64,000 nucleotides of DNA from Pseudovibrio japonicus (GTDB lineage Bacteria > Pseudomonadota > Alphaproteobacteria > Rhizobiales > Stappiaceae). Within the stretch, counting starts at the first letter, position 1. Every line of letters begins with the position of its first letter. Shown here in pieces: positions 380 through 39,125 of this stretch. Made by a program: the position numbers and the translations under genes. Where the stretch lies: NCBI RefSeq assembly GCF_014651595.1, contig NZ_BMXE01000004.1:1-64000 (forward strand), given 5' to 3'. The notes beneath the pieces are model-generated. The model did no database searches. It had not been told where the DNA came from and saw only the letters and a program-made list of their open reading frames with translations.

Positions 380-763
380 TCAGTTCTCGCAGTGAACTGG
401 ATACCCAACCCGAAGCTTAGGGTCACCAATCACAATCAGCTCACTTGGATCACAAGTTACACTCTCAGTGGGAGAGCTATCGAAAGGTCGGAATTTAAGT
501 GCTCGAAGCCCAGAGAGCATTGTGACTTCTCCGCACACAAAGCCAACTTCTTCGGTATCTCTGTGCTTTACAATGGAGCCCAGCTCGGGTTCACACAACA
601 CAAGATCAGAATTAAACATGTTTAGAAAGTCAACTTCAGCGTTTCTATCATCAAGATGCGCAGTTGCCGCCTTAAGAAGACTATCAAAAACATCTTGCCG
701 CGCAGCCGCATGCCTACTCTTTACTTTATCTGAATGATCATCGCGATTTATGTCGATGGGCAT
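380..763 (-). CDS. Hypothetical protein
   Basis: A 127-residue protein begins MPIDINRDD. I chose this ATG over an upstream one because the extra 25 residues (rich in Cys, Phe and Trp) look like translated leader. No family is recognised. The N-terminal half is helical and charged. The C-terminal half has a beta-rich pattern (LGSIVKHRDTEEVGFVCGEV), possibly a small barrel. It lies alone in the AT-rich patch between nosL and the acyltransferase module and is unlike its chromosomal neighbours in composition, which suggests acquisition by transfer. Confidence 0.5.
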   Translation of the reverse strand: MPIDINRDDHSDKVKSRHAAARQDVFDSLLKAATAHLDDRNAEVDFLNMFNSDLVLCEPELGSIVKHRDTEEVGFVCGEVTMLSGLRALKFRPFDSSPTESVTCDPSELIVIGDPKLRVGYPVHCEN

Positions 764-1216
764 AAGAGCTCTTTCAACTAGAGAACAATAAAAAGACAAA
801 TAGTGCCAACAGGACTCCTTGCAAAATGGAAAGAACACAAAGCAAGGCTAAATTGGATAATAAATCCATATCTTAGATTTTAATAATTAGAAAGAACAAA
901 ATCCAATTTTGAATTCGAGTGTAAGTTTGGCCTAACCTACGTATTCGGTACAATATCAAAAGTTGTCCATAATTTCTTTTAATATTCAGGGAGATAGGTG
1001 GTCTTGTGTCGTATGCGTAACCAGCGTCATGAAGCATTTTCAACTTGTATAAACTGGTTACCTGCTTCGGGATGTTTGTCCTTAGGTAAGACAAGGTATT
1101 ATTTGTCACGAATCTCAAATACTCAACAAGCCTTTCGACTTAGTTGGTTGACGCGCGCCAGTGCCTTTCATTGAGCTGGTACAAGTAGGAGTTCAACAGA
1201 CTATAGGTTGTTAGGA
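764..1216. other. AT-rich intergenic region upstream of module A
   Basis: About 450 bases without a convincing gene. It is strongly AT-rich up to about 1130. The last 100 bases, just before the acyltransferase gene, are of mixed composition and should contain its promoter, but I cannot identify -35/-10 elements with confidence. An 81-codon minus-strand frame at 873-1118 was considered and rejected. Confidence 0.4.
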
Positions 1217-1897
1217 ATGGATATTATCTCTTTTGCCAGAGCAATAACTAAACTGAGAGATCGAATCTCAGAGTACAGCTTGGAGATTGTAGTAGATCAA
1301 GACCAACATAATTATGCTTCTTACATTCAACACACCGAGGAAGCGCCAGGAGAGCATTTTGGGGTGTCCTTCAATACAATCACGCCGGAAAATTTGAGCT
1401 GCGTGTACCTACGTGAAAAAATAGCAACAGGGCAATACAAAACGGTAGGCACATGCGTTGCTCGGCTTGATAACCTTGGTGAATGGTCTCTATCAGATTA
1501 TTGGAAAGTTCACATGCAGCGTATCTTCACGCATGAAGACGGAGGCCGTCCTGAACTCAAAGATAAGCAACCGGGATTTGCACGCAAGCGCCCGGGCCGT
1601 GTTATATACATGGGGGCAATGTGGATAGACAAAGAATGGAGAGGACATGGACTGGCACAAGATCTCGCACATTTGGCAATGATGATAAATTGGCTCACAT
1701 GGAAACCAAACTTAATCTATGCCTTTATGACAGACGATCATGTCTCAAGAGGGCTTGCTTCCAAATTCGAGTGGGGAATGATCAAGCCTATGGGGATCCG
1801 ATGGGAGCGTCGTGCAACAGAATTTCCCCACGACCTTTGGTACGTTGCGAACGACCAAGAGGATGTTGAAGATCTTGCCTATCGACACGCACAATAG
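1217..1897 (+). CDS. GNAT-fold acyltransferase-like protein, module A
   Basis: A 226-residue protein starts at ATG 1217; a TTG nine bases upstream is an alternative. Residues about 130-165 contain YMGAMWIDKEWRGHGLAQDL, which matches the acyl-CoA binding motif A of the GNAT fold (R-x-x-G-x-A). The upstream block CVARLDNLGEW and the downstream W-R-R-A-T-E block are shared with the prophage protein at 32715-33425, so the two are clear homologues. The overall plan also recalls LuxI-type N-acylhomoserine lactone synthases, which share the GNAT fold, but their diagnostic residues are not evident and I do not call it LuxI. Substrate is unknown. It converges with, and its 3' end overlaps, the PAS-like gene on the other strand. 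Conserved pairing with the same three opposite-strand genes suggests one functional unit. Confidence 0.65.
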   Translation: MDIISFARAITKLRDRISEYSLEIVVDQDQHNYASYIQHTEEAPGEHFGVSFNTITPENLSCVYLREKIATGQYKTVGTCVARLDNLGEWSLSDYWKVHMQRIFTHEDGGRPELKDKQPGFARKRPGRVIYMGAMWIDKEWRGHGLAQDLAHLAMMINWLTWKPNLIYAFMTDDHVSRGLASKFEWGMIKPMGIRWERRATEFPHDLWYVANDQEDVEDLAYRHAQ

Positions 1898-2369
1898 GTT
1901 GTGTGGGCAGGGCAAGGGATCCGAGCAATGCCTTGCCCGTTTTCAGATACAAAGGGAAAATTAGTCGAGAATAGGCAACCCAAATAACCTCTGATTCACT
2001 CACACGAAAATCATAGGAAATAATATCAAGTATTGGCTCGTTACTTATGACCGCAGCTCGATATCCTTCAGCAACATAGCTCCGAAATGCAAGGTCTAAA
2101 TCTGAATTCAAATCTTGCGAACATCCACTCCACTTATCGCCCAAAATCTTTGCAGCCAACGTCTTGCTACCTGAATAAATTGCTACTGGTAGGTCTCCAC
2201 GAACATAATCCCCCTTAAACTGGACAAGGTACTCAATGTAGGGAAGAAATTCATCCACCACCTGGCCGCCAGTCTTATCCCATAGAGAAAGAATATCAGA
2301 CATCAGATCGCCATGTATGTTGCGATAAGCTCCATGGATTGGGCAGTTCTTAATGAACCGATTATGCAT
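1788..2369 (-). CDS. PAS-like sensor protein, module A
   Basis: A 193-residue protein whose central part (about residues 40-150) looks like the PAS-type domain of many small alphaproteobacterial proteins: a leading helix, then a tail of the form tgePv...Y-x-RLIFPL...G..LLGSLAL. Its homologue in the prophage is 33388-33858, which aligns over this region (EFLPYIEYL/NFLDLMPYL, YSRLIFPL/YFRLILPF). The last 40 or so residues lie antisense to the end of the acyltransferase gene (110-base overlap) and have no counterpart in the prophage copy, so the stop may have been lost. Its ATG overlaps the stop of the small gene upstream by 8 bases and has an AAAGGAAG ribosome site. A ligand-sensing role is inferred from fold resemblance only. 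Confidence 0.55.
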   Translation of the reverse strand: MHNRFIKNCPIHGAYRNIHGDLMSDILSLWDKTGGQVVDEFLPYIEYLVQFKGDYVRGDLPVAIYSGSKTLAAKILGDKWSGCSQDLNSDLDLAFRSYVAEGYRAAVISNEPILDIISYDFRVSESEVIWVAYSRLIFPLYLKTGKALLGSLALPTQPIVRVDRQDLQHPLGRSQRTKGRGEILLHDAPIGSP

Positions 2370-2622
2370 CTTCCTTTGGGCTCCTCATATGCCTAACAAC
2401 AACTAGCATCTGGCGAAGACGTCCCATAACAACTTCTTTTTCAGCTAACGTTATTGACTGATAGTCATGCGTTCCAGATTCTTCCAAAGTAGCCGCTTTA
2501 ACGAAACTAAGAAGGCCTTCCGACTCCATTAGCGTCAGAAATTCATCATATCGTTGCTGTGTAGAGACCGGTATCGAGCGAATCTCTTCGAGATCTCTAA
2601 AAGTACGTAGAGTTGAAACCAT
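2362..2622 (-). CDS. Small helical protein, module A
   Basis: An 86-residue charged, helix-rich protein of no recognised family. It matches the 87-residue product of 33842-34105 in length, position and a few blocks (QRYDEF/KRFNQL, EGL, and RLRQ/HLRK followed by an R-H pair). It is the first gene of the leftward pair with the PAS-like gene, and their 8-base overlap implies translational coupling. A 7-bp inverted repeat with 15-base spacing lies just upstream, and its proximal arm reaches the GGAG ribosome site. Confidence 0.55.
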   Translation of the reverse strand: MVSTLRTFRDLEEIRSIPVSTQQRYDEFLTLMESEGLLSFVKAATLEESGTHDYQSITLAEKEVVMGRLRQMLVVVRHMRSPKEDA

Positions 2623-2633
2623 AAAAATATGCT

Positions 2634-2662
2634 CCGACTATATATGTAAAAAGTGTAGTCGG
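2634..2662 (-). promoter_or_regulatory. Inverted repeat upstream of module A small gene
   Basis: CCGACTA at 2634-2640 and TAGTCGG at 2656-2662 form a perfect 7-bp inverted repeat whose arm centres are 22 bases apart, about two helical turns. It lies 12 bases upstream of the start codon at 2622. Read as DNA it could be a dimeric operator, perhaps for the neighbouring HTH protein. Read as RNA the hairpin would mask the GGAG ribosome site. Which applies is not determinable here. Confidence 0.45.
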
Positions 2663-2808
2663 TATATTACCGTGATTATGCGTAGAAAAATAGTAACTAG
2701 ATAGAAATGCGTTGGTCTACGACAAGCTACCTTGAAATGAAAACGACTGACAAATTAAGAAATTCACTTCTTTTGATGAACCGAAATAATGCAGTGCATG
2801 TTCGTTGC

Positions 2809-3225
2809 CTATTCGCTTCGTTTAAGCATCTCCTGATATATGCGTGCAAACATGGTTGAAACAAAGTCAATTGGTCCCTTGTTGCCAACTCCATAAACCT
2901 GCTCTTCCACTTCAAGTGCTTGACGCCATGCTCTATCAATAAGCCCCAGATCAACCTCTCTGGTACTCTCTTCAAGGCCCGCTAGAAACTTGGAGCTATC
3001 AAATGAGGAGTGATTATCAACCTTATGAAATCCAAATCGGAGAAACTGTTCGTCAACCCCAAGCGCATGAGAAAGTTTTGCAATCGTATCCCCACGCGGG
3101 TTTTCGATCAGACCTTTTTCGATCTTATAAAGATTGTCATACCCAATGTTCGCAAGCCTCGCGAGGTCCTGAATCGTCATCTCATTTTGCTTGCGTAGTT
3201 GTTGAAGTCGCTCTTGCCAAGTCAT
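2809..3225 (-). CDS. HTH (Xre/Cro-CI family) regulator, module A
   Basis: A 138-residue protein. Residues about 4-60 form a Cro/CI helix-turn-helix (MTIQDLARLANIGYDNLYKIE then NPRGDTIAKLSHALGV). The C-terminal part ends with a W-R-Q-A-L-E-V-E-E-Q-V-Y-G block and a DF..M..RIYQEMLKR helix. Both the HTH and this unusual C-terminal helix are shared with the prophage regulator at 34270-34683, so the proteins are homologues over their whole length. I chose the start at 3225 because the domain begins there, although ATG/TTG codons up to 3270 remain possible. The protein probably controls its own gene and the module genes downstream. Confidence 0.7.
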   Translation of the reverse strand: MTWQERLQQLRKQNEMTIQDLARLANIGYDNLYKIEKGLIENPRGDTIAKLSHALGVDEQFLRFGFHKVDNHSSFDSSKFLAGLEESTREVDLGLIDRAWRQALEVEEQVYGVGNKGPIDFVSTMFARIYQEMLKRSE

Positions 3226-13155: not shown

Positions 13156-14340
13156 CTATTTGCGTCGTTTTTTCAATACCTTAAGGGGTTTTGTTTGGGA
13201 AGTTCCGGTAATATTCCGGGACTTTTTGTCCGTTTGCGACTTCCCACTGTGCACCATCTCCATTTGAGTAGCGAAATCATCAGTCATCAGGTGGGCATAC
13301 TTTTCGGTTGTTGTCGACCGTGTATGACCCAAAAGTTTCTGCGCTACGCGGAGGTTTCCGGTCACTCTCAGTGTACGGGTTGCTGCAGTGTGACGCAAGT
13401 CATGAACACGCAATTTCGGCTTCCCGATTGCTTCTGCAGCTGCCTTAAATTCACGCCGGAATGTATGGACTTGAAGAGGGTAACGAGCACCACGTTGCCG
13501 ACCATCAATGGTACGTCTCGCAACGTATGTGAAGACGGAATCCTCGTGATTGCCGATGTTGTTTGCAAGTATGGTTGCCATAGGGCCGGTGATTGGGATT
13601 ACAATGCGGCGGCCACCTGGCTTCTTTGACTTCACCTGAAAAGTGATTTGCATGTGGTCAAAGTCAACTGCATCAGCCGTCAACACGATCCCTTTACCGA
13701 CGAGCGCATTCGATGCTCTGGGACCGGCGAGAATGAGGAAATCAAGAGCATCATGAAAATCTTCTCGCATGTGCTCTTTAATTTTCGCCTGATCGTCTGC
13801 TGTCACTTCCACAATCCGTGCATCCGGCTCTTCAAGCATAACAGCCTTGAAGTTCGGAACTGTGATCTCAAGTTCCCAAACATCGTTTGCATAGTTGAAG
13901 ATTGTGCGCAGCAAGCTGAGTTCGCGATTGATCGTTGCCGGTTGCGGTAGGTGGCCGCGCTTGTTGGGTTGGCTTCGGCGGGCTGAGACGTAGCGCGCAA
14001 GGTGGCGCGTTTTGATTTCTGAAAGATTGTAGTCAACTCGGTCTTGGTCGAGTATTTCGCTAAGATTGTCCTGAAGCTGCTCAAGACGCCATGAGACTGC
14101 TTTTGGTTCCGAATAGTGCTGCGCTTTCTCTTCCCAAAAATTATCAAAAGCGCCGTCAATTGTCGTTGTGTCTTTGGGAGTCTTGAGTTCTTCCCGCAGA
14201 CGCGCTTCTACTTTCTCCGCTTCCCTCTTGGTGGTCTTTTCCGTGCTTCCGTAATATCTACGACCCTTGTACTGGAAGTCGTAGTGGAACTCCTGGCTCT
14301 TGTATTTCCCTTTCTTGTCCTTTGGCCGATAGACGGACAT
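13156..14340 (-). CDS. int: Prophage tyrosine-recombinase integrase
   Basis: A 394-residue phage integrase. The N-terminal part is an arm-binding/SAM-like core-binding region (residues about 1-170). The catalytic domain shows the first arginine in LAGPRASNAL, the H-x-x-R box in LRVHDLRHTAATR, and the final histidine and tyrosine in LLGHTRSTTTEKYAHL. It excises and inserts the phage at the adjacent tRNA-Ser(UGA) gene. Its 5' end is overlapped by about 130 bases by the HTH gene upstream, so the two are probably coexpressed. Confidence 0.93.
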   Translation of the reverse strand: MSVYRPKDKKGKYKSQEFHYDFQYKGRRYYGSTEKTTKREAEKVEARLREELKTPKDTTTIDGAFDNFWEEKAQHYSEPKAVSWRLEQLQDNLSEILDQDRVDYNLSEIKTRHLARYVSARRSQPNKRGHLPQPATINRELSLLRTIFNYANDVWELEITVPNFKAVMLEEPDARIVEVTADDQAKIKEHMREDFHDALDFLILAGPRASNALVGKGIVLTADAVDFDHMQITFQVKSKKPGGRRIVIPITGPMATILANNIGNHEDSVFTYVARRTIDGRQRGARYPLQVHTFRREFKAAAEAIGKPKLRVHDLRHTAATRTLRVTGNLRVAQKLLGHTRSTTTEKYAHLMTDDFATQMEMVHSGKSQTDKKSRNITGTSQTKPLKVLKKRRK

Positions 14341-32714: not shown

Positions 32715-33425
32715 ATGGTAGTAATGATGTATCAGAATCCTATAGAAACTAGTGAAGCAATTTCACTATTAACTACTGAACTAAAGGATAATAAATTTTA
32801 TTTGAACTATTATTCGTCACACAAAGAGTTTTCAGTTGTGATCGATAAAAGCTGCAAGTTAAAGTTGGGTGAAAACATGAGTCTTACCCTGAACTCTCTT
32901 ACGCCAGCAACATTTTTTGGGATTTCACTAAGTAGTGCGGAAGGGGAATGCATTGCAAGCATTGCCGCACGAAAAGACAACCTTGGCGGGCAGTGCCTTG
33001 GGGAGTTCCTGAAAAACTACTTTGCACGCATCTATACAAGCCAGAGTGGTGCTGCGCAACTGGCTGAAGCGATCCCTGCATATGCAAGAGAACCCTTGTT
33101 CGAGACCTCTTACATTGGCGAACTATGGGTACATCAGGATCACCGTAATCTGAAGATCGCCAGAGCTATGGTGAAGCTAGCGATCCTGCTGTCAGTTCAG
33201 ATGTGGGGAGTGGGGTATGTTTATGCTTTTCTTACAGCCAGACATATGAAAGTCGGCCCCTTGCAATACGGCTGGACGCGTGCCTACCAGAGGGCGCTCA
33301 AATGGGAGAGGGAGCCGACAGAGGTTCCAGGTGATCTTGGATTTGTTGCGATCACTGGTGAAGAGGTTGCCGATTTAGCTCGGCTTGTTATTGAAGAACT
33401 GAGCTTGCATACGAAAAGAGCGTGA
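32715..33425 (+). CDS. GNAT-fold acyltransferase-like protein, module B
   Basis: A 236-residue homologue of the chromosomal acyltransferase at 1217-1897. Shared blocks include AARKDNLGGQ/CVARLDNLGE, YIGELWVHQDHR/YMGAMWIDKEWR, VYAFLTARHM/IYAFMTDDHV and WEREPTEVPGDLGFVA/WERRATEFPHDLWYVA. The acyl-CoA loop here is HRNLKIARAM, so the glycine of R-x-x-G-x-A is Lys and activity may differ. Three ATGs (32715, 32724, 32727) are possible; no strong ribosome site decides. Facing the leftward PAS-like gene, it is the only + gene between the early leftward operon and the repressor. Confidence 0.65.
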   Translation: MVVMMYQNPIETSEAISLLTTELKDNKFYLNYYSSHKEFSVVIDKSCKLKLGENMSLTLNSLTPATFFGISLSSAEGECIASIAARKDNLGGQCLGEFLKNYFARIYTSQSGAAQLAEAIPAYAREPLFETSYIGELWVHQDHRNLKIARAMVKLAILLSVQMWGVGYVYAFLTARHMKVGPLQYGWTRAYQRALKWEREPTEVPGDLGFVAITGEEVADLARLVIEELSLHTKRA

Positions 33426-33858
33426 TATTTCCACGTCTTAAGAGGAACGGCAAGATCAATCGAAAATAATGAACATCCTCATAACCACCGTGAGGAAGCG
33501 CAATTGGCGTGTAGAGAAGATCCAGCCTCGGAGACAGGCTCTGGGCGGATATCTGATAGTCTGTCGAAACAGTCTTCAAGAGGTCTGGATCCACTCTCGC
33601 CCTGTTTGAAGGGGTGTCTCTGGCCCAGGCTTGGCCGTAGACGCCGGCAAGGTAGGTCTTATCACCCACCAGCAGGATGTCAGCTAATCCGCCATTATCC
33701 AATGGATTGGCAAACTGATTGAGGTACGGCATCAAATCCAGAAAATTCTCATTAAGTCGAAAGTCGTTTTCTCTCCATGTTTCAATAAGTTGTTTGGCTT
33801 GGGCGCCTACTAACCCCTCTTCTGCAAGGGTGGGTGAATAATTAGTGATACTTGTCAT
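33388..33858 (-). CDS. PAS-like sensor protein, module B
   Basis: A 156-residue homologue of the chromosomal PAS-like protein. The region LPLMPYLNQF-like helix, then DILLVGDKTYLAGVYGQAWA, and the C-terminal HYFRLILPFLLRRGNITLFSYA strand pair correspond to the conserved sequence order. The protein ends about at the end of the domain, whereas the chromosomal copy has an extra 40 residues. GGAAGG lies six bases before the ATG. Its 3' end overlaps the acyltransferase by 38 bases on the opposite strand. Confidence 0.55.
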   Translation of the reverse strand: MTSITNYSPTLAEEGLVGAQAKQLIETWRENDFRLNENFLDLMPYLNQFANPLDNGGLADILLVGDKTYLAGVYGQAWARDTPSNRARVDPDLLKTVSTDYQISAQSLSPRLDLLYTPIALPHGGYEDVHYFRLILPFLLRRGNITLFSYASSVLQ

Positions 33859-34105
33859 ATGAGGCCTTCCGGTTATGTCGGGTCATGACAATGGCTTTTC
33901 TCAAGTGTCCGTAAGTTATTGCTTTTTCAAAATCTGATAGGGTTTTCAGGTTTCGTTTGTCGAAGTGTAAGAGAATGTACGAAGAAATTAACACCTCTAG
34001 ACCTTCGTCTTGCGCCCATTCCACAAGTTGATTGAAGCGCTTTTCAATAGACAAAGGCTCTTTCTTTTGAAGATCCTGATCCTCGGTAATTACTTTTGAA
34101 TTCAT
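33842..34105 (-). CDS. Small helical protein, module B
   Basis: An 87-residue counterpart of the chromosomal 86-residue protein. ATG 34105 follows GAGGAACG; an earlier ATG at 34144 is less likely. It overlaps the PAS-like gene by 17 bases. A TTGGAAT motif lies about 17-23 bases upstream of the start on the coding strand. Function unknown. Confidence 0.55.
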   Translation of the reverse strand: MNSKVITEDQDLQKKEPLSIEKRFNQLVEWAQDEGLEVLISSYILLHFDKRNLKTLSDFEKAITYGHLRKAIVMTRHNRKASYDKYH

Positions 34106-34238
34106 CGTTCCTCGCAAGGAAATTCCAAATGCCACTTTAGTCAAAGTGTCATTCGGTTTTTGATCTTAACTGTGAAGAATTTCTTAACGCATGCGGGCAG
34201 AACTCATGCCGGATGCTTCGGTAGCCTCTACGGAAGGC

Positions 34239-34266
34239 AAAAAAAAAGCCGCCCTATTCGGCGGCT
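34239..34266 (-). terminator. Terminator of the repressor gene
   Basis: On the minus strand AGCCGCC-GAATAG-GGCGGCT is followed by a run of eight to nine T. It begins four bases after the stop of the HTH gene, so it separates it from the small gene/PAS-like pair, which must have its own promoter. Confidence 0.85.
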
Positions 34267-34269
34267 GAT

Positions 34270-34683
34270 TTATTTTGCTTCATCTTTGTCGTTTATCATT
34301 CGCTTGAGTATTCGCTCATAGGTTTCCAGCAGGAAGTCCATACCCCCACCTTGTTTCCCATAAACGCGCTCTTCAATTGCTTCTGCAGCTTCCCATGCCT
34401 GTTTGGCGAGAAGTCCATTTACGCCTTCAGGGTTGGCCTGCATGGCAAAATGGAGTTCGTCTGCATCCATTGTTGGTGGCGTTTCTTCGCCAGTCTCAAG
34501 GTATTCCACTGAAACACCGAGGGTTTTCGCAATCAATGCGAGAGTTTGCCCACGGGGTTCCTTTGTCTTATCGTGCTCAAGCTTGTTCAGACGGTCATAG
34601 CCAACGCCAGACAAGTCCGCGAGCTTTCGCCGATTCCAAGAACGCTCTTCGCGCTTTTTGACAATTCGTTCACCTCTAGTCAT
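34270..34683 (-). CDS. HTH repressor (CI-like), module B
   Basis: A 137-residue homologue of the chromosomal HTH regulator: RRKLADLSGVGYDRLNKLE and EPRGQTLALIAKTLGV form the HTH, and AWEAAEAIEERVYGKQGGGMDFLLETYERIL matches the chromosomal C-terminal helix. It occupies the classical position of the phage repressor: it is transcribed leftward, away from the rightward replication operon, across a region with repeated GCCAA/TTGGC half-sites. It lacks the LexA-like peptidase domain of lambda CI, so SOS induction by self-cleavage is unlikely. ATG 34683 is used; ATG 34698 is possible. Confidence 0.7.
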   Translation of the reverse strand: MTRGERIVKKREERSWNRRKLADLSGVGYDRLNKLEHDKTKEPRGQTLALIAKTLGVSVEYLETGEETPPTMDADELHFAMQANPEGVNGLLAKQAWEAAEAIEERVYGKQGGGMDFLLETYERILKRMINDKDEAK

Positions 34684-34714: not shown

Positions 34715-34806
34715 TTTTGGCTTTCGACGCCAAATTCATGGCTTTTTGCGCTTGTTTTTGGCGCAATATCCAAATAAGTTTGACCAAACGCCAATTTATC
34801 TTGGCG
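34715..34806. promoter_or_regulatory. Operator cluster at the lysogeny switch
   Basis: Within 92 bases: TTTTGGC (34715) with CGCCAAA (34728), TTTTTGGCGC (34755), CGCCAA (34789) and TTGGCG (34801). The first two and the last two are inverted-repeat pairs separated by six bases. The cluster lies between the HTH repressor and the rightward cro-like gene, where phage operators are expected. Which half-sites pair is not certain. Confidence 0.55.
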
Positions 34807-34846: not shown

Positions 34847-35125
34847 ATGGATGACACTCCTTCTAAGTCACCGACAAGTGAGAGAGTATGGGAGAGGGTG
34901 GGGCCTCCCCGTAAGCTTATTAAAGAAATCAAAACGCGCTTTGGCGTTGAAGTGAGTAGCTCAACGGTATCCAATTGGCGCTCCAGCAATAACAAGAAAA
35001 ACAACGCCCCCAATCAGTACTACCCGCTCATCGCTGCAATGTCGGAGTACTCGCTTGAGGAGGTTTTCTACGCGTTCAACCCAGAAAGCCGCATCACAGA
35101 AACACTCGACCGGGGGACGCATTGA
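34847..35125 (+). CDS. Cro-like HTH protein, first gene of rightward operon
   Basis: A 92-residue protein starting MDDTPSKSP (an ATG at 34829 is possible). KLIKEIKTRFGVEVSSSTVSNW is a helix-turn-helix in which the second helix resembles replication-initiation or YdaS-type regulators. It is divergent from the repressor gene and first in the operon, like cro. It may be the antirepressor or a replication factor. Its stop overlaps the TTG of the next gene. Confidence 0.6.
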   Translation: MDDTPSKSPTSERVWERVGPPRKLIKEIKTRFGVEVSSSTVSNWRSSNNKKNNAPNQYYPLIAAMSEYSLEEVFYAFNPESRITETLDRGTH

Positions 35126-35697
35126 CCTGGGACCTAAGCGGACTGGTTCCGCTTTCCTATGACTTCATCATGGCTGACCCGCCTTGGAAGTATGAGAATT
35201 GGTCCAAGAAGGGTGAACTCAAGAATGCTTCTGCGAAGTATGACTGCATGGTGACCGCCGACATCATGACGCTCCCGCTCAGCAACTTTGCGCAAAAGAA
35301 CTGCACACTCTGGCTTTGGGCTACAAACCCGATGCTCCCGCAGGCCTTTGAATTGCTGAACGCATGGGGCTTTAAATTTGTAACTGCCGGCCATTGGGTC
35401 AAGTACACCTACAACAAACGAACCGAGGAACGCTCCTTGGGGTTTGGAACTGGGTACTGCCTGCGCTCTGCTGGAGAGCCCTTTCTAATTGGAAAGATCG
35501 GAAAGCCAAAGTTTGCCAAAACCGTTCGATCCGTCATTGAAGGTTTACGCCGCGATCACTCCAGAAAGCCTGATGAAGCCTACATAGCTGCCGAGCAACT
35601 GTGCCCAGAAGCCCTCAATCGGCTTGATCTGTTCTCCAGACAGGAGCGTCCCGGCTGGACTGCCTGGGGCAACGAAATTCACAAGTTCACCGCCTGA
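35122..35697 (+). CDS. MT-A70-type adenine-N6 DNA methyltransferase
   Basis: A 191-residue protein with YDFIMADPPWKYE (the DPPW catalytic motif of N6-adenine methyltransferases), followed by LWLWATNPMLPQAFELLNAWGFKFV and EPFLIGKIG, all typical MT-A70 blocks. The start is TTG 35122 overlapping TGA (TTGA), because an internal ATG at 35170 would remove the strand before the motif. Phage-borne enzymes of this type modify phage DNA, commonly against restriction or for timing. No cognate endonuclease is seen. Confidence 0.85.
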   Translation: MTWDLSGLVPLSYDFIMADPPWKYENWSKKGELKNASAKYDCMVTADIMTLPLSNFAQKNCTLWLWATNPMLPQAFELLNAWGFKFVTAGHWVKYTYNKRTEERSLGFGTGYCLRSAGEPFLIGKIGKPKFAKTVRSVIEGLRRDHSRKPDEAYIAAEQLCPEALNRLDLFSRQERPGWTAWGNEIHKFTA

Positions 35698-36989: not shown

Positions 36990-37539
36990 AGATTACTCCC
37001 AGCTATCCAAACCAGCAGGTGAGGCAAATGCACTGTTTGTAAACGACGATCAGGGCTTGATCAAAGCACGCCCCATCGGAGGTTGGTCTAAATCGCCCTA
37101 TCTCATTGACCGGCGTTGGCTACGTGATGACCTGATTGAGGCTCTGGAACAAAATTTCTTAAAGCACGTGGGTTGGTCGCGCTCCTTTGCGGCGATGGCT
37201 GCCATGCAAAACGCCGCCGCCGCGTTCCTCGGTCATCCGAAGAGGGTCAACTTGGGTGAGGCAAGAGTTGGTTGGTATGAGCGAATGTATTCCATCGTTT
37301 GCGACGAGACGAACAACTCGGCGGAAAGTTTTCGTCGCGGTCATCTGAATGTGACGATTTCCTACACGAGCATAGAAAATAGTCTGTTGATGGACTTGGG
37401 ATACCGAGACCTTTTGTCCACGGCCTCCCGCCAAGTGATTTCCTACATCGAACAGTTCCGCCAGCCCATTTATTCGATTGGCTGGGATTTCGCGAACGAT
37501 GCTCTTCATTTCGACATACTCAATTGGGGGAAGCGATGA
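36982..37539 (+). CDS. Hypothetical phage protein
   Basis: A 185-residue protein starting at ATG 36982, overlapping the RuvC-like stop by 8 bases. It contains long helices (AAMAAMQNAAAAFLGHP), and a beta-rich C-terminal half. Not recognised. Confidence 0.55.
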   Translation: MNEDYSQLSKPAGEANALFVNDDQGLIKARPIGGWSKSPYLIDRRWLRDDLIEALEQNFLKHVGWSRSFAAMAAMQNAAAAFLGHPKRVNLGEARVGWYERMYSIVCDETNNSAESFRRGHLNVTISYTSIENSLLMDLGYRDLLSTASRQVISYIEQFRQPIYSIGWDFANDALHFDILNWGKR

Positions 37540-39125
37540 TCCAAGATCTGTTTCTCAAAGACATTAATGCTGTTCCTTTATTCCCGCATTCCGAGCTGAT
37601 CATTGACGCATTCGCCGGAGGAGGGGGCGCCTCCACAGGGATTGAGCGCGCATTGGGCCGCTCTCCCGACATTGCGATCAACCATTGCGACAAAGCTCTC
37701 ACAACCCACGCAGCCAACCACCCGGATACGATCCACCTGAGAGAAGATGTCTTTGACGTGGACTTGAAGGCCCATACCAGCGGTCTCCCAGTCGGACTGC
37801 TCTGGGCGTCCCCGGACTGCCGTCACTTCTCCAAAGCTGGTGGTGGAAGGATCGTCTCCGAGAAGGTGCGTATGCTGGCCTGGTCGGTGGTCAACTTCTG
37901 CCAGAAGCTGGGCAAGCGCAAAAAGCCGCGTGTGATCATTCTTGAGAACGTAGCTGAATTCGCCAAGTGGGGACCGTTGGGCCCCAACGGAAAGCCAATC
38001 AAGAGCCGTGAAGGTGAAACCTTCAACAAGTGGTGCGATGCGCTGCGCAAGCTTGGCTACAAGGTGGAACATCGCTTGCTCAAAGCCTGTGACTATGGCG
38101 CACCAACCATCAGAGAGCGCTTGTTTTTGGTAGCCCGCTGCGACCGCAAGCCGATTGTCTGGCCTGCACCGACCCACGGGAATCCAAAGGCCAAAGGATT
38201 TGCCAAGAGCAATCTAAAGCCATGGCGGCCAGCAGCAGAGATCATTGACTGGTCGTTACCCTGCCACTCCATCTTTTTGAGCAAGGAAGAAGGGCGGAAA
38301 GTTGGTGTGAAGAGACCGCTGTCGGACAACACCATGCGCCGGATAGCTCTGGGAACGGTGAAGTACGTTCTGAATGCTCAGCAACCCTTTATCTTCAATA
38401 TGAGCCATGGTGGGCGTATCGAGCCTCTCACAGAGCCGCTAAGGACGACAACAACCACGAAAGGCGGTGAGCGCCTACTGGTCGTCCCGTTTGTCAAAAG
38501 GGACTTCAAGAACTCAGTTGGGCATGCGATTGATGACCCTCTCGCCACTGTTACTGCCGGTGGCGGCGGCCATGCTTGTCTGGTCTCCGCCTTCCTGGCA
38601 CAGCATAATTCCGGAGTGATTGGCCGGTCTGTGTCGGAACCGCTATCCACTGTCATGAAATCAGGCTCTCATCAGGCGCTCGTTACCAGCCACCTTCTGA
38701 GCCTGAAAGGAACCTCCCGGCGCTCCCAGTCGATCTTTGAACCAGCCCCTACCATCACCGCAGGCGGCATGCACGCAGCTGAAGTGAGAGCGTTTCTGAT
38801 CAAGTATTATGGATCAAACATTGGGCAGTCGCTTGATGATCCTATTGGAACTGTCACGACGCGGGACCGCTTTGGGTTGGTAACCGTGAACATCGCGGGT
38901 GAGCCTTATATCATCACCGATATTTGCATGCGGATGCTTTCTGCGCGTGAGCTCTATCGTGCTCAAGGGTTCTATGAGAACCACGAAATTCGACCAATAT
39001 ACAACGGGCGACCTCTCCCTAAAAAATATCAGGTAGCCCAGTGCGGAAATAGCGTTTCTCCAGATCCGGCAGAAGCTCTGGTTGCTTCCAATTGTCCTGA
39101 CTTGTGTGTGCGTGGGGAGGCATGA
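37536..39125 (+). CDS. DNA (cytosine-5) methyltransferase
   Basis: A 529-residue protein. Motif I is IIDAFAGGGGASTGIERA, motif IV is WASPDCRHFSKAGGG (catalytic Cys, with the DCRHFS variant typical of this phage family instead of PCQ.FS), motif VI is IILENV, motif VIII is IRERLFLVARC, and the final motifs IX-X include AQCGNSV. The target recognition domain around residues 230-420 is long and repetitive in layout (repeated LS-T-V-T-A-G-G motifs). ATG 37536 overlaps the upstream stop. It probably modifies phage DNA to evade restriction. Confidence 0.88.
   Translation: MIQDLFLKDINAVPLFPHSELIIDAFAGGGGASTGIERALGRSPDIAINHCDKALTTHAANHPDTIHLREDVFDVDLKAHTSGLPVGLLWASPDCRHFSKAGGGRIVSEKVRMLAWSVVNFCQKLGKRKKPRVIILENVAEFAKWGPLGPNGKPIKSREGETFNKWCDALRKLGYKVEHRLLKACDYGAPTIRERLFLVARCDRKPIVWPAPTHGNPKAKGFAKSNLKPWRPAAEIIDWSLPCHSIFLSKEEGRKVGVKRPLSDNTMRRIALGTVKYVLNAQQPFIFNMSHGGRIEPLTEPLRTTTTTKGGERLLVVPFVKRDFKNSVGHAIDDPLATVTAGGGGHACLVSAFLAQHNSGVIGRSVSEPLSTVMKSGSHQALVTSHLLSLKGTSRRSQSIFEPAPTITAGGMHAAEVRAFLIKYYGSNIGQSLDDPIGTVTTRDRFGLVTVNIAGEPYIITDICMRMLSARELYRAQGFYENHEIRPIYNGRPLPKKYQVAQCGNSVSPDPAEALVASNCPDLCVRGEA

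What the first reader, a model, noticed from the sequence alone, without database searches (positions are those of the whole stretch)
1217..3225. A four-gene module (acyltransferase, PAS-like, small helical protein, HTH) exists twice: on the chromosome and inside the prophage
Module A (1217-3225) and module B (32715-34683) have the same four genes in the same order and orientation: a rightward GNAT-fold acyltransferase facing leftward PAS-like, small helical and HTH genes. Every protein pair shares sequence: the acyltransferases over most of their length (for example WERRATEFPHDLWYVA versus WEREPTEVPGDLGFVA), the HTH proteins including an unusual C-terminal helix (E-E-Q/R-V-Y-G), the PAS-like proteins over the PAS core. 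The prophage copy holds the repressor position. This looks like a conserved regulatory cassette, perhaps signal production and sensing, that a phage has captured or given. I know no described system with these four parts.
Basis: partly seen in the sequence, partly recalled or inferred. Interest (0 to 1): 0.85.

Follow-up and report, generated by a model that had tools for sequence, protein, structure and literature searches.

The report
Shared bacterial and phage switch cassette
The same four-gene regulatory cassette (an acyltransferase facing a sensor-like protein, a small helical protein and a DNA-binding protein) sits on a marine bacterium's chromosome and at the repressor position of its prophage, and may be an undescribed chemical-signal switch, though no signal has been shown.

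Summary
Confirmed: modules A and B match gene for gene (E 8e-30 to 5e-10). All 8 viral contigs found, and Labrenzia phage vB_LagS-V1, carry all four genes. The conserved core is the GNAT-PAS pair: together at 27 of 28 non-window places in 61 related genomes, the full four at 10 of 28. In reverse, 29 of 32 PAS places lie beside such a GNAT. Fold searches support GNAT clearly, PAS weakly. In phages the HTH gene takes the CI position, divergent from a small ORF. Elsewhere PAS is fused to the small protein or a LysR-type HTH, so these probably form one regulator. Not LuxI/LuxR. Best model: the GNAT makes or modifies a small acylated molecule that the PAS regulator senses, like the xre-luxR-luxI switches of Phaeobacter prophages. 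Against: module B and 7 of 8 viral GNATs lack the canonical CoA motif; solitary GNATs and solitary PAS genes exist; no product is known. Regulatory cassette: near certain. Signalling: plausible, unproven.

The parts
1217..1897 (+). Module A GNAT-fold acyltransferase (226 aa), CoA motif R-G-H-G-L-A intact
1788..2369 (-). Module A PAS-fold protein (193 aa), overlaps the GNAT gene tail to tail by 110 nt
2362..2622 (-). Module A small helical protein (86 aa)
2809..3225 (-). Module A XRE-type HTH protein with conserved C-terminal helix (EEQVYG)
   Evidence: (HTH_3 41.6 bits, cut-off 23)
32715..33425 (+). Module B (prophage) GNAT-family protein (236 aa), CoA motif degenerate (RNLKIA)
33388..33858 (-). 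Module B PAS-like protein (156 aa)
33842..34105 (-). Module B small helical protein (87 aa)
34270..34683 (-). Module B HTH protein at the CI position; no peptidase domain found
34728..34806 (.). Operator-like cluster of four CGCCAA/TTGGCG half-sites between HTH B and the divergent gene
34847..35125 (+). Divergent small ORF in the Cro position (the tool's ORF starts at TTG 34829); no PHROG match, Cro-like by position only

Best explanation
The module is a small-molecule-responsive genetic switch. The HTH, small and PAS genes form one leftward operon whose products act together: the HTH protein represses DNA (in the phage, the divergent small gene in the Cro position), and the PAS and small proteins set its activity through its conserved C-terminal helix. 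The GNAT, transcribed from the other side and overlapping the PAS gene tail to tail, makes or modifies a small acylated molecule that the PAS domain reads. In the prophage this sets repression and hence lysis or lysogeny; on the chromosome the same circuit controls unknown targets, and the two copies could cross-talk. Shown: gene content, order, co-occurrence, folds (PAS weakly), CI/Cro layout, fusions of PAS to the small protein or to a DNA-binding domain. Inferred: complex formation, small-molecule product, sensing, effect on lysogeny.
For: Co-occurrence: PAS convergent with GNAT at 27 of 28 non-window places in 61 genomes and PAS beside GNAT in 19 of 30 class-wide loci analysed, which hold 31 of the 35 non-window places; in four of the 19 the genes are in tandem instead of convergent. 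Reverse search: 29 of 32 places, the window's two included, and 9 of 14 non-window class-wide. A PAS profile over 8,954 ORF entries of 106 GNAT-centred entries (102 stretches, four counted twice) gave 83 hits, each beside a GNAT; 704 control ORFs gave only the two window genes (the profile was trained on such neighbours and the stretches include near-duplicates). All 8 viral contigs are complete, each with a small divergent ORF. Fusions: small+PAS in three genomes of one genus, LysR-type HTH+PAS in two proteins of one genome. HTH DNA-binding parts differ while the C-terminal helix stays (by eye); gene distances correlate r 0.91-0.97 over 17 modules. Operator-like repeats in the window prophage. 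Some distant GNATs lie near L-amino acid ligase, aminotransferase or methyltransferase genes, pointing to a small-molecule substrate. xre-luxR-luxI prophage switches with a host system alongside are reported in Phaeobacter (preprint PMC13345283).
Against: The loose motif [RQK]xxGx[GASPNK] is missing in module B, in 7 of 8 viral GNATs and in 10 of 29 members of A5, so phage copies may be inactive or use another donor. The full four genes stand at only 10 of 28 non-window places; small and HTH profiles each hit 14 of 28, with a diverged small gene at 9 more. 3 of 32 and 5 of 14 PAS genes have no such GNAT nearby; 11 of 30 class-wide GNAT loci, five rhizobial plasmid loci (of 15 records found) and three Bradyrhizobium loci show no PAS. 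No CGCCAA cluster lies upstream of GNAT B; in L154 the motif is not significant by itself (P 0.39) and in six further viral contigs no six-mer stands out. No PDB match to the PAS model reaches E 0.001 (best 3.5e-3). None of 24 core chromosomal loci (L126-L149) shows an HTH gene. No product, ligand or regulation is known. Confidence lowered from 0.45 to 0.42 on recounting the full modules and the LysR fusions.
Confidence: 0.42

Rival explanations
1. The GNAT acts on protein, not on a diffusible molecule: it acetylates, or as a dead enzyme simply binds, the PAS, small or HTH protein and so tunes the repressor inside the cell.
For: Degenerate CoA motif in module B and 7 of 8 viral copies; the best fold matches include N-terminal protein acetyltransferases (NAA60, NatD); co-inheritance of the four genes in 17 full modules.
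Against: GNAT-less PAS loci and PAS-less GNAT loci exist; some distant GNATs lie near amino-acid-type metabolic genes; fold neighbours also include small-molecule acetyltransferases such as dopamine N-acetyltransferase.
Confidence: 0.32
2. The PAS protein senses something unrelated to the GNAT (redox, light, a metabolite) and the GNAT is only an output or a passenger gene.
For: PAS fold neighbours are largely LOV and other sensor PAS domains; GNAT-less PAS loci; no operator-like cluster upstream of GNAT B.
Against: GNAT and PAS remain adjacent across families even when orientation changes; GNAT and PAS distances show the highest correlation of the six pairs (r 0.97, the others 0.91-0.95).
Confidence: 0.16
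3. A toxin-antitoxin or defence cassette, with the GNAT as a tRNA- or protein-acetylating toxin.
For: AtaT and KacT structures are among the fold matches.
Against: No PADLOC match for GNAT, PAS or small protein, only generic HTH matches; the GNAT gene is convergent, not in an operon with a small antitoxin; the HTH gene is in the CI position.
Confidence: 0.05
4. A divergent LuxI/LuxR acyl-homoserine-lactone system.
For: Same layout idea as prophage xre-luxR-luxI cassettes (PMC13345283).
Against: No Pfam Autoind_synth match at E 0.1 in 37 members; profile comparison with 8 LuxI proteins gives 0.2% probability, with 11 generic GNATs of the own genome 86.7% (65.1% in reverse); no LuxI match in the window's genome; no Pfam match in 34 PAS members.
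Confidence: 0.03

Closest known systems
xre-luxR-luxI prophage modules with divergent hth, Phaeobacter inhibens T5 (preprint PMC13345283; abstract, sections 5, 6, 14, discussion part 1 of 2 and passages read)
   Same: Four-gene prophage switch: XRE protein, sensor, GNAT-superfamily enzyme (that LuxI has a GNAT-like fold is recalled), divergent small HTH gene at the lysis-lysogeny position; a host-encoded system in the same genome; alphaproteobacterial phages.
   Different: Synthase and receptor are not LuxI or LuxR; the acyltransferase gene is convergent, not in the operon; an extra small helical protein; no signal known. The paper's main text holds neither 'GNAT' nor 'PAS domain'.
XRE-LuxR-smORF module of Aeromonas phage ARM81ld (PMC9894119, passages read)
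   Same: XRE protein works with a sensor protein and a small protein to control induction.
   Different: LuxR receptor listens to a host signal; the passages name no synthase in the cassette; the small gene is counter-oriented, here it is in the operon.
TF-small protein modules of polylysogens (PMC10432266, abstract and section list read)
   Same: Regulator plus small protein controlling prophage repression.
   Different: Sequences not compared.
Lambda-type CI/Cro immunity region (recalled)
   Same: HTH repressor divergent from a small gene, operator-like repeats between.
   Different: No peptidase domain found in the 137-138 aa HTH proteins, so RecA-stimulated self-cleavage is unlikely.
PAS_5 family (PF07310)
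   Same: A tandem relative of the PAS protein (L122) scores 21.0 bits against a cut-off of 22.
   Different: Window proteins give no PAS match in Pfam.

Membership tests
LuxI/LuxR quorum sensing | Synthase of family Autoind_synth (PF00765) | tested here: not met
   (own genome)
LuxI/LuxR quorum sensing | Receptor with LuxR autoinducer-binding domain and GerE HTH | tested here: not met
   no Pfam match at E 0.1 in 34 PAS members; window HTH is HTH_3
LuxI/LuxR quorum sensing | Diffusible acyl-homoserine lactone | not testable with these tools
   needs chemistry
GNAT superfamily | GNAT fold | tested here: met
   module A model pLDDT 92; Foldseek best E 6.2e-7, the 50 matches shown (of 276 with E up to 0.001) are mostly named acetyltransferases; Pfam GNAT hits stay below the cut-off
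GNAT superfamily | Q/R-x-x-G-x-G/A CoA-pyrophosphate motif | tested here: inconclusive
   met in module A, not in module B; loose pattern 28 of 37 in A10 (rich in near-identical core copies) and 19 of 29 in A5
PAS domain | PAS fold | tested here: inconclusive
   module A model pLDDT 86; the top Foldseek matches are mostly PAS/LOV proteins but none reaches E 0.001 (best 3.5e-3); no Pfam match in the window
Phage CI-type repressor | XRE HTH divergent from a Cro-like gene | tested here: met
   HTH_3 above cut-off; divergent annotated repressor in the Labrenzia phage; divergent small ORF in the window prophage and 8 viral contigs, not tested by profile except the window's, which gave no PHROG match
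Phage CI-type repressor | LexA-like self-cleaving peptidase domain (not in all CI proteins) | tested here: not met
GNAT toxin-antitoxin (AtaT/TacT) | Operon with a ribbon-helix-helix antitoxin (recalled) | tested here: not met
   GNAT gene convergent; no ribbon-helix-helix match among the eight proteins
Anti-phage defence systems | Match to PADLOC models | tested here: not met
   only generic HTH matches

The most novel reading that the evidence does not exclude
An undescribed chemical-signalling system, unrelated in its parts to LuxI/LuxR, in which a GNAT-made acylated small molecule is read by a PAS-small-HTH regulator; it is spread over alphaproteobacterial chromosomes and their temperate phages, sets the lysis-lysogeny switch in the phages, includes receptor-only loci, and lets host and prophage hear each other.
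Probability: 0.32. Interest if true: 0.92.

Novelty: new variant of a known kind. Interest (0 to 1): 0.72.

Why it matters
Phage decisions by quorum sensing are known with peptides and with LuxI/LuxR parts (PMC13345283). A further, non-homologous enzyme-sensor cassette at the same place, with a host copy in the same genome, would show that chemical control of lysogeny arose more often than thought and would hand experimenters a compact system: one enzyme, one sensor, one repressor, with natural host/phage pairs and receptor-only loci. The finding also defines a co-occurring set of proteins that the family libraries searched here do not name.

Tried and rejected
LuxI membership: rejected by Pfam and profile comparison. 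A first LuxI set held 4 wrong ORFs among 12 and was replaced by the 8 whose lengths agree. Toxin-antitoxin and defence: no support. A shared operator between modules or upstream of the GNATs: none seen; only the B divergent region has a significantly repeated motif. The gene at 380-838 as a fifth member: found only beside module A and its close relative L069 among the loci searched. Single-protein scan of viral contigs with GNAT B: no relative, while the alignment scans found 8 loci. PAS B against phage records gave one weak Streptococcus phage match (E 4e-3), taken as chance and not followed. Small protein of the core chromosomal type versus the phage type: only weak similarity (probability 24%, E 8.5e-4). 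An N-terminal HTH in the PAS proteins of L099 and L115, suspected by eye, was not confirmed by Pfam. Rhizobial papers (listing, passages): a GNAT gene near ectB is listed in one, homology not tested. Literature: no paper on this cassette found with the terms.

Full report
1. What is there. The GNAT gene runs rightward and overlaps the leftward PAS gene tail to tail (110 nt in A, 38 nt in B); the small and HTH genes follow behind the PAS gene. Module B sits in a prophage with integrase (13156-14340), DnaB-like helicase, terminase, portal and head genes. Module A is outside it, but the contig starts at window base 1, so its left context is unknown. No further copy of the GNAT was found in the genome. 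The host family holds Pannonibacter and Roseibium: contigs of same-family genomes have the same lengths as named contigs (for example 442386 and 354822 bases; lengths). I call this family Stappiaceae from memory.

2. The cassette is a family. Labrenzia phage vB_LagS-V1 carries the same four genes, its HTH annotated as repressor protein CI beside a divergent transcriptional repressor. Scans of viral contigs gave 8 loci (1, 7), all with the four genes. They are not all independent: L155 is 99% identical in the GNAT to the Labrenzia phage and L154 gives the same profile hits as the prophage of genome G007 (L068). In 61 related genomes the GNAT occurs in 20, at 30 places. Of the 28 outside the window, 27 have the PAS gene convergent with it, the miss being L095; the phage-type small profile hits 14, the HTH profile 14, and all of PAS, small and HTH stand at 10; three of the 28 are copies with the same score in one genome. 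Class-wide, 29 of 385 genomes have a GNAT, with at most 7 candidates per genome scored. Of 35 non-window places I examined 31, in 30 loci: 15 loci have a convergent PAS gene and 4 a PAS gene in tandem, 19 of 30; two more convergent hits at E 0.02 to 0.03 (L117, L118) are not counted. A phylum-wide sample gave 13 of 398 genomes, all in the class but one weak hit, again with at most 7 candidates scored.

3. Reverse test. Searching the same 61 genomes with the PAS alignment gave 32 places, 29 of them (the window's two included) the known modules. The other three, in one genus, have no such GNAT; there one ORF holds both the small protein and the PAS domain, behind a protein that keeps the HTH family's C-terminal helix, in two of the three without a detected DNA-binding part. 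Class-wide the PAS search found 14 non-window places in 372 genomes; 9 coincide with GNAT places, and 5 have no such GNAT in the 7.5-8 kb fetched. A PAS profile run over 8,954 ORF entries of 106 GNAT-centred entries (102 stretches, four counted twice, some near-duplicates) hit 83: 82 beside the GNAT by rule, the last being the L111 gene counted from its second GNAT. Over 704 control ORFs it hit only the two window genes. That profile was trained on such neighbours, so the genome searches are the fairer test.

4. Folds. The GNAT model (module A, pLDDT 92) matches acetyltransferases (best E 6.2e-7), among them protein N-terminal, dopamine and AtaT/KacT-type enzymes; only 50 of 276 matches with E up to 0.001 were shown. 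The PAS model (module A, pLDDT 86) matches mostly PAS and LOV proteins but weakly (best E 3.5e-3, none at 0.001). Pfam gives sub-threshold GNAT hits and no PAS hit in the window; one distant relative comes within about a bit of PAS_5, and two PAS proteins of one genome carry an N-terminal LysR-type HTH above cut-off.

5. How it probably works. In the window prophage and in all 8 viral contigs a small divergent ORF begins within about 150 nt of the HTH start, as in CI/Cro regions; for L154 this takes an internal start like the window's, the tool's ORF being longer. That these ORFs are Cro-like is judged by position and, in the Labrenzia phage, by annotation. In the window this gap holds four CGCCAA/TTGGCG half-sites, the only cluster of four within 100 nt in 64 kb (shuffle P 0.018 for any six-mer). 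The related L154 has three in the same place, including TTGGCGCCAA, but is not significant alone (P 0.39); six further viral contigs show no outstanding six-mer. The repressor has no peptidase domain, so another input than RecA is likely. Over 17 distinct full modules the gene distances correlate at 0.91-0.97, and by eye the HTH DNA-binding parts differ while the C-terminal helix is kept: the part that would touch the partners is conserved, the part that reads DNA is exchanged. Fusions of PAS with the small protein or with a DNA-binding domain, and a LuxR-type regulator gene next to the small gene in L078, say that PAS and small protein belong to the regulator. The GNAT is then the input side. 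Some distant GNATs lie near an L-amino acid ligase (L005), aminotransferases (L152) or methyltransferases (L096, L097, L009), which suggests an amino-acid-like substrate. This is inference.

6. Against it. The CoA motif is intact in module A but not in module B; by a loose pattern it is missing in 9 of 37 (A10) and 10 of 29 (A5) members, and of the 8 viral copies only L161 keeps it. Phage copies could use acyl-ACP, as LuxI does (recalled), or be inactive binders. GNAT-less PAS loci and PAS-less GNAT loci exist. In 24 core chromosomal loci (L126-L149) the PAS is found in 23 (L130 lies near a contig end) and the HTH profile finds no HTH; a small gene of a diverged type is found in 23, its relation to the phage type being weak. 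Nine of the 28 places of paragraph 2 are of this core type, so the two sets overlap.

7. Comparison. The closest described system is the xre-luxR-luxI plus hth switch of two Phaeobacter inhibens prophages, where a host LuxI/LuxR system co-resides and the autoinducers set lysogeny (preprint PMC13345283; read). The layout and setting are alike, the parts are not: no LuxI profile match and no LuxR domain. So it may work like such a system, but it is not a member of LuxI/LuxR. No paper describing the present cassette was found (searches; open-licence papers only).

Noticed in passing
L204 4723-5535, L205 4190-4912, L206 5178-5900: GNAT-less loci in one genus where small protein and PAS are one ORF behind an HTH-family protein; in L205 and L206 only that protein's C-terminal helix is detected. 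They resemble receptor solos.
   Followed up: partly
L126, L128, L131, L141, L143, L149: The core chromosomal GNAT-PAS-small locus lies between tRNA-Pro(tgg) and tRNA-Arg(tct) in the six core loci scanned (20 loci scanned in all).
   Followed up: no
L073, L074, L075: Three copies with the same GNAT score in one genome (G036) on three contigs; genes beside L073 look phage-like by eye. Perhaps one phage present several times.
   Followed up: no
L005, L006, L152: Rhizobial GNAT relatives near a diaminobutyrate transaminase and an ATP-grasp ligase with LAL_C2 domain (L005), an annotated biotin-carboxylase-like gene (L006) and class III aminotransferases (L152): possible biosynthetic cluster on symbiosis plasmids.
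   Followed up: partly
L096: A distant GNAT is followed by a histidine kinase and, by eye, a response-regulator-like gene, and flanked by a methyltransferase.
   Followed up: no
window 380-838: Leftward gene beside module A, with a homolog only beside the close module relative L069 among the loci searched.
   Followed up: partly
window 35122-35697 and 37524-39125: The prophage carries two DNA methyltransferase genes.
   Followed up: no
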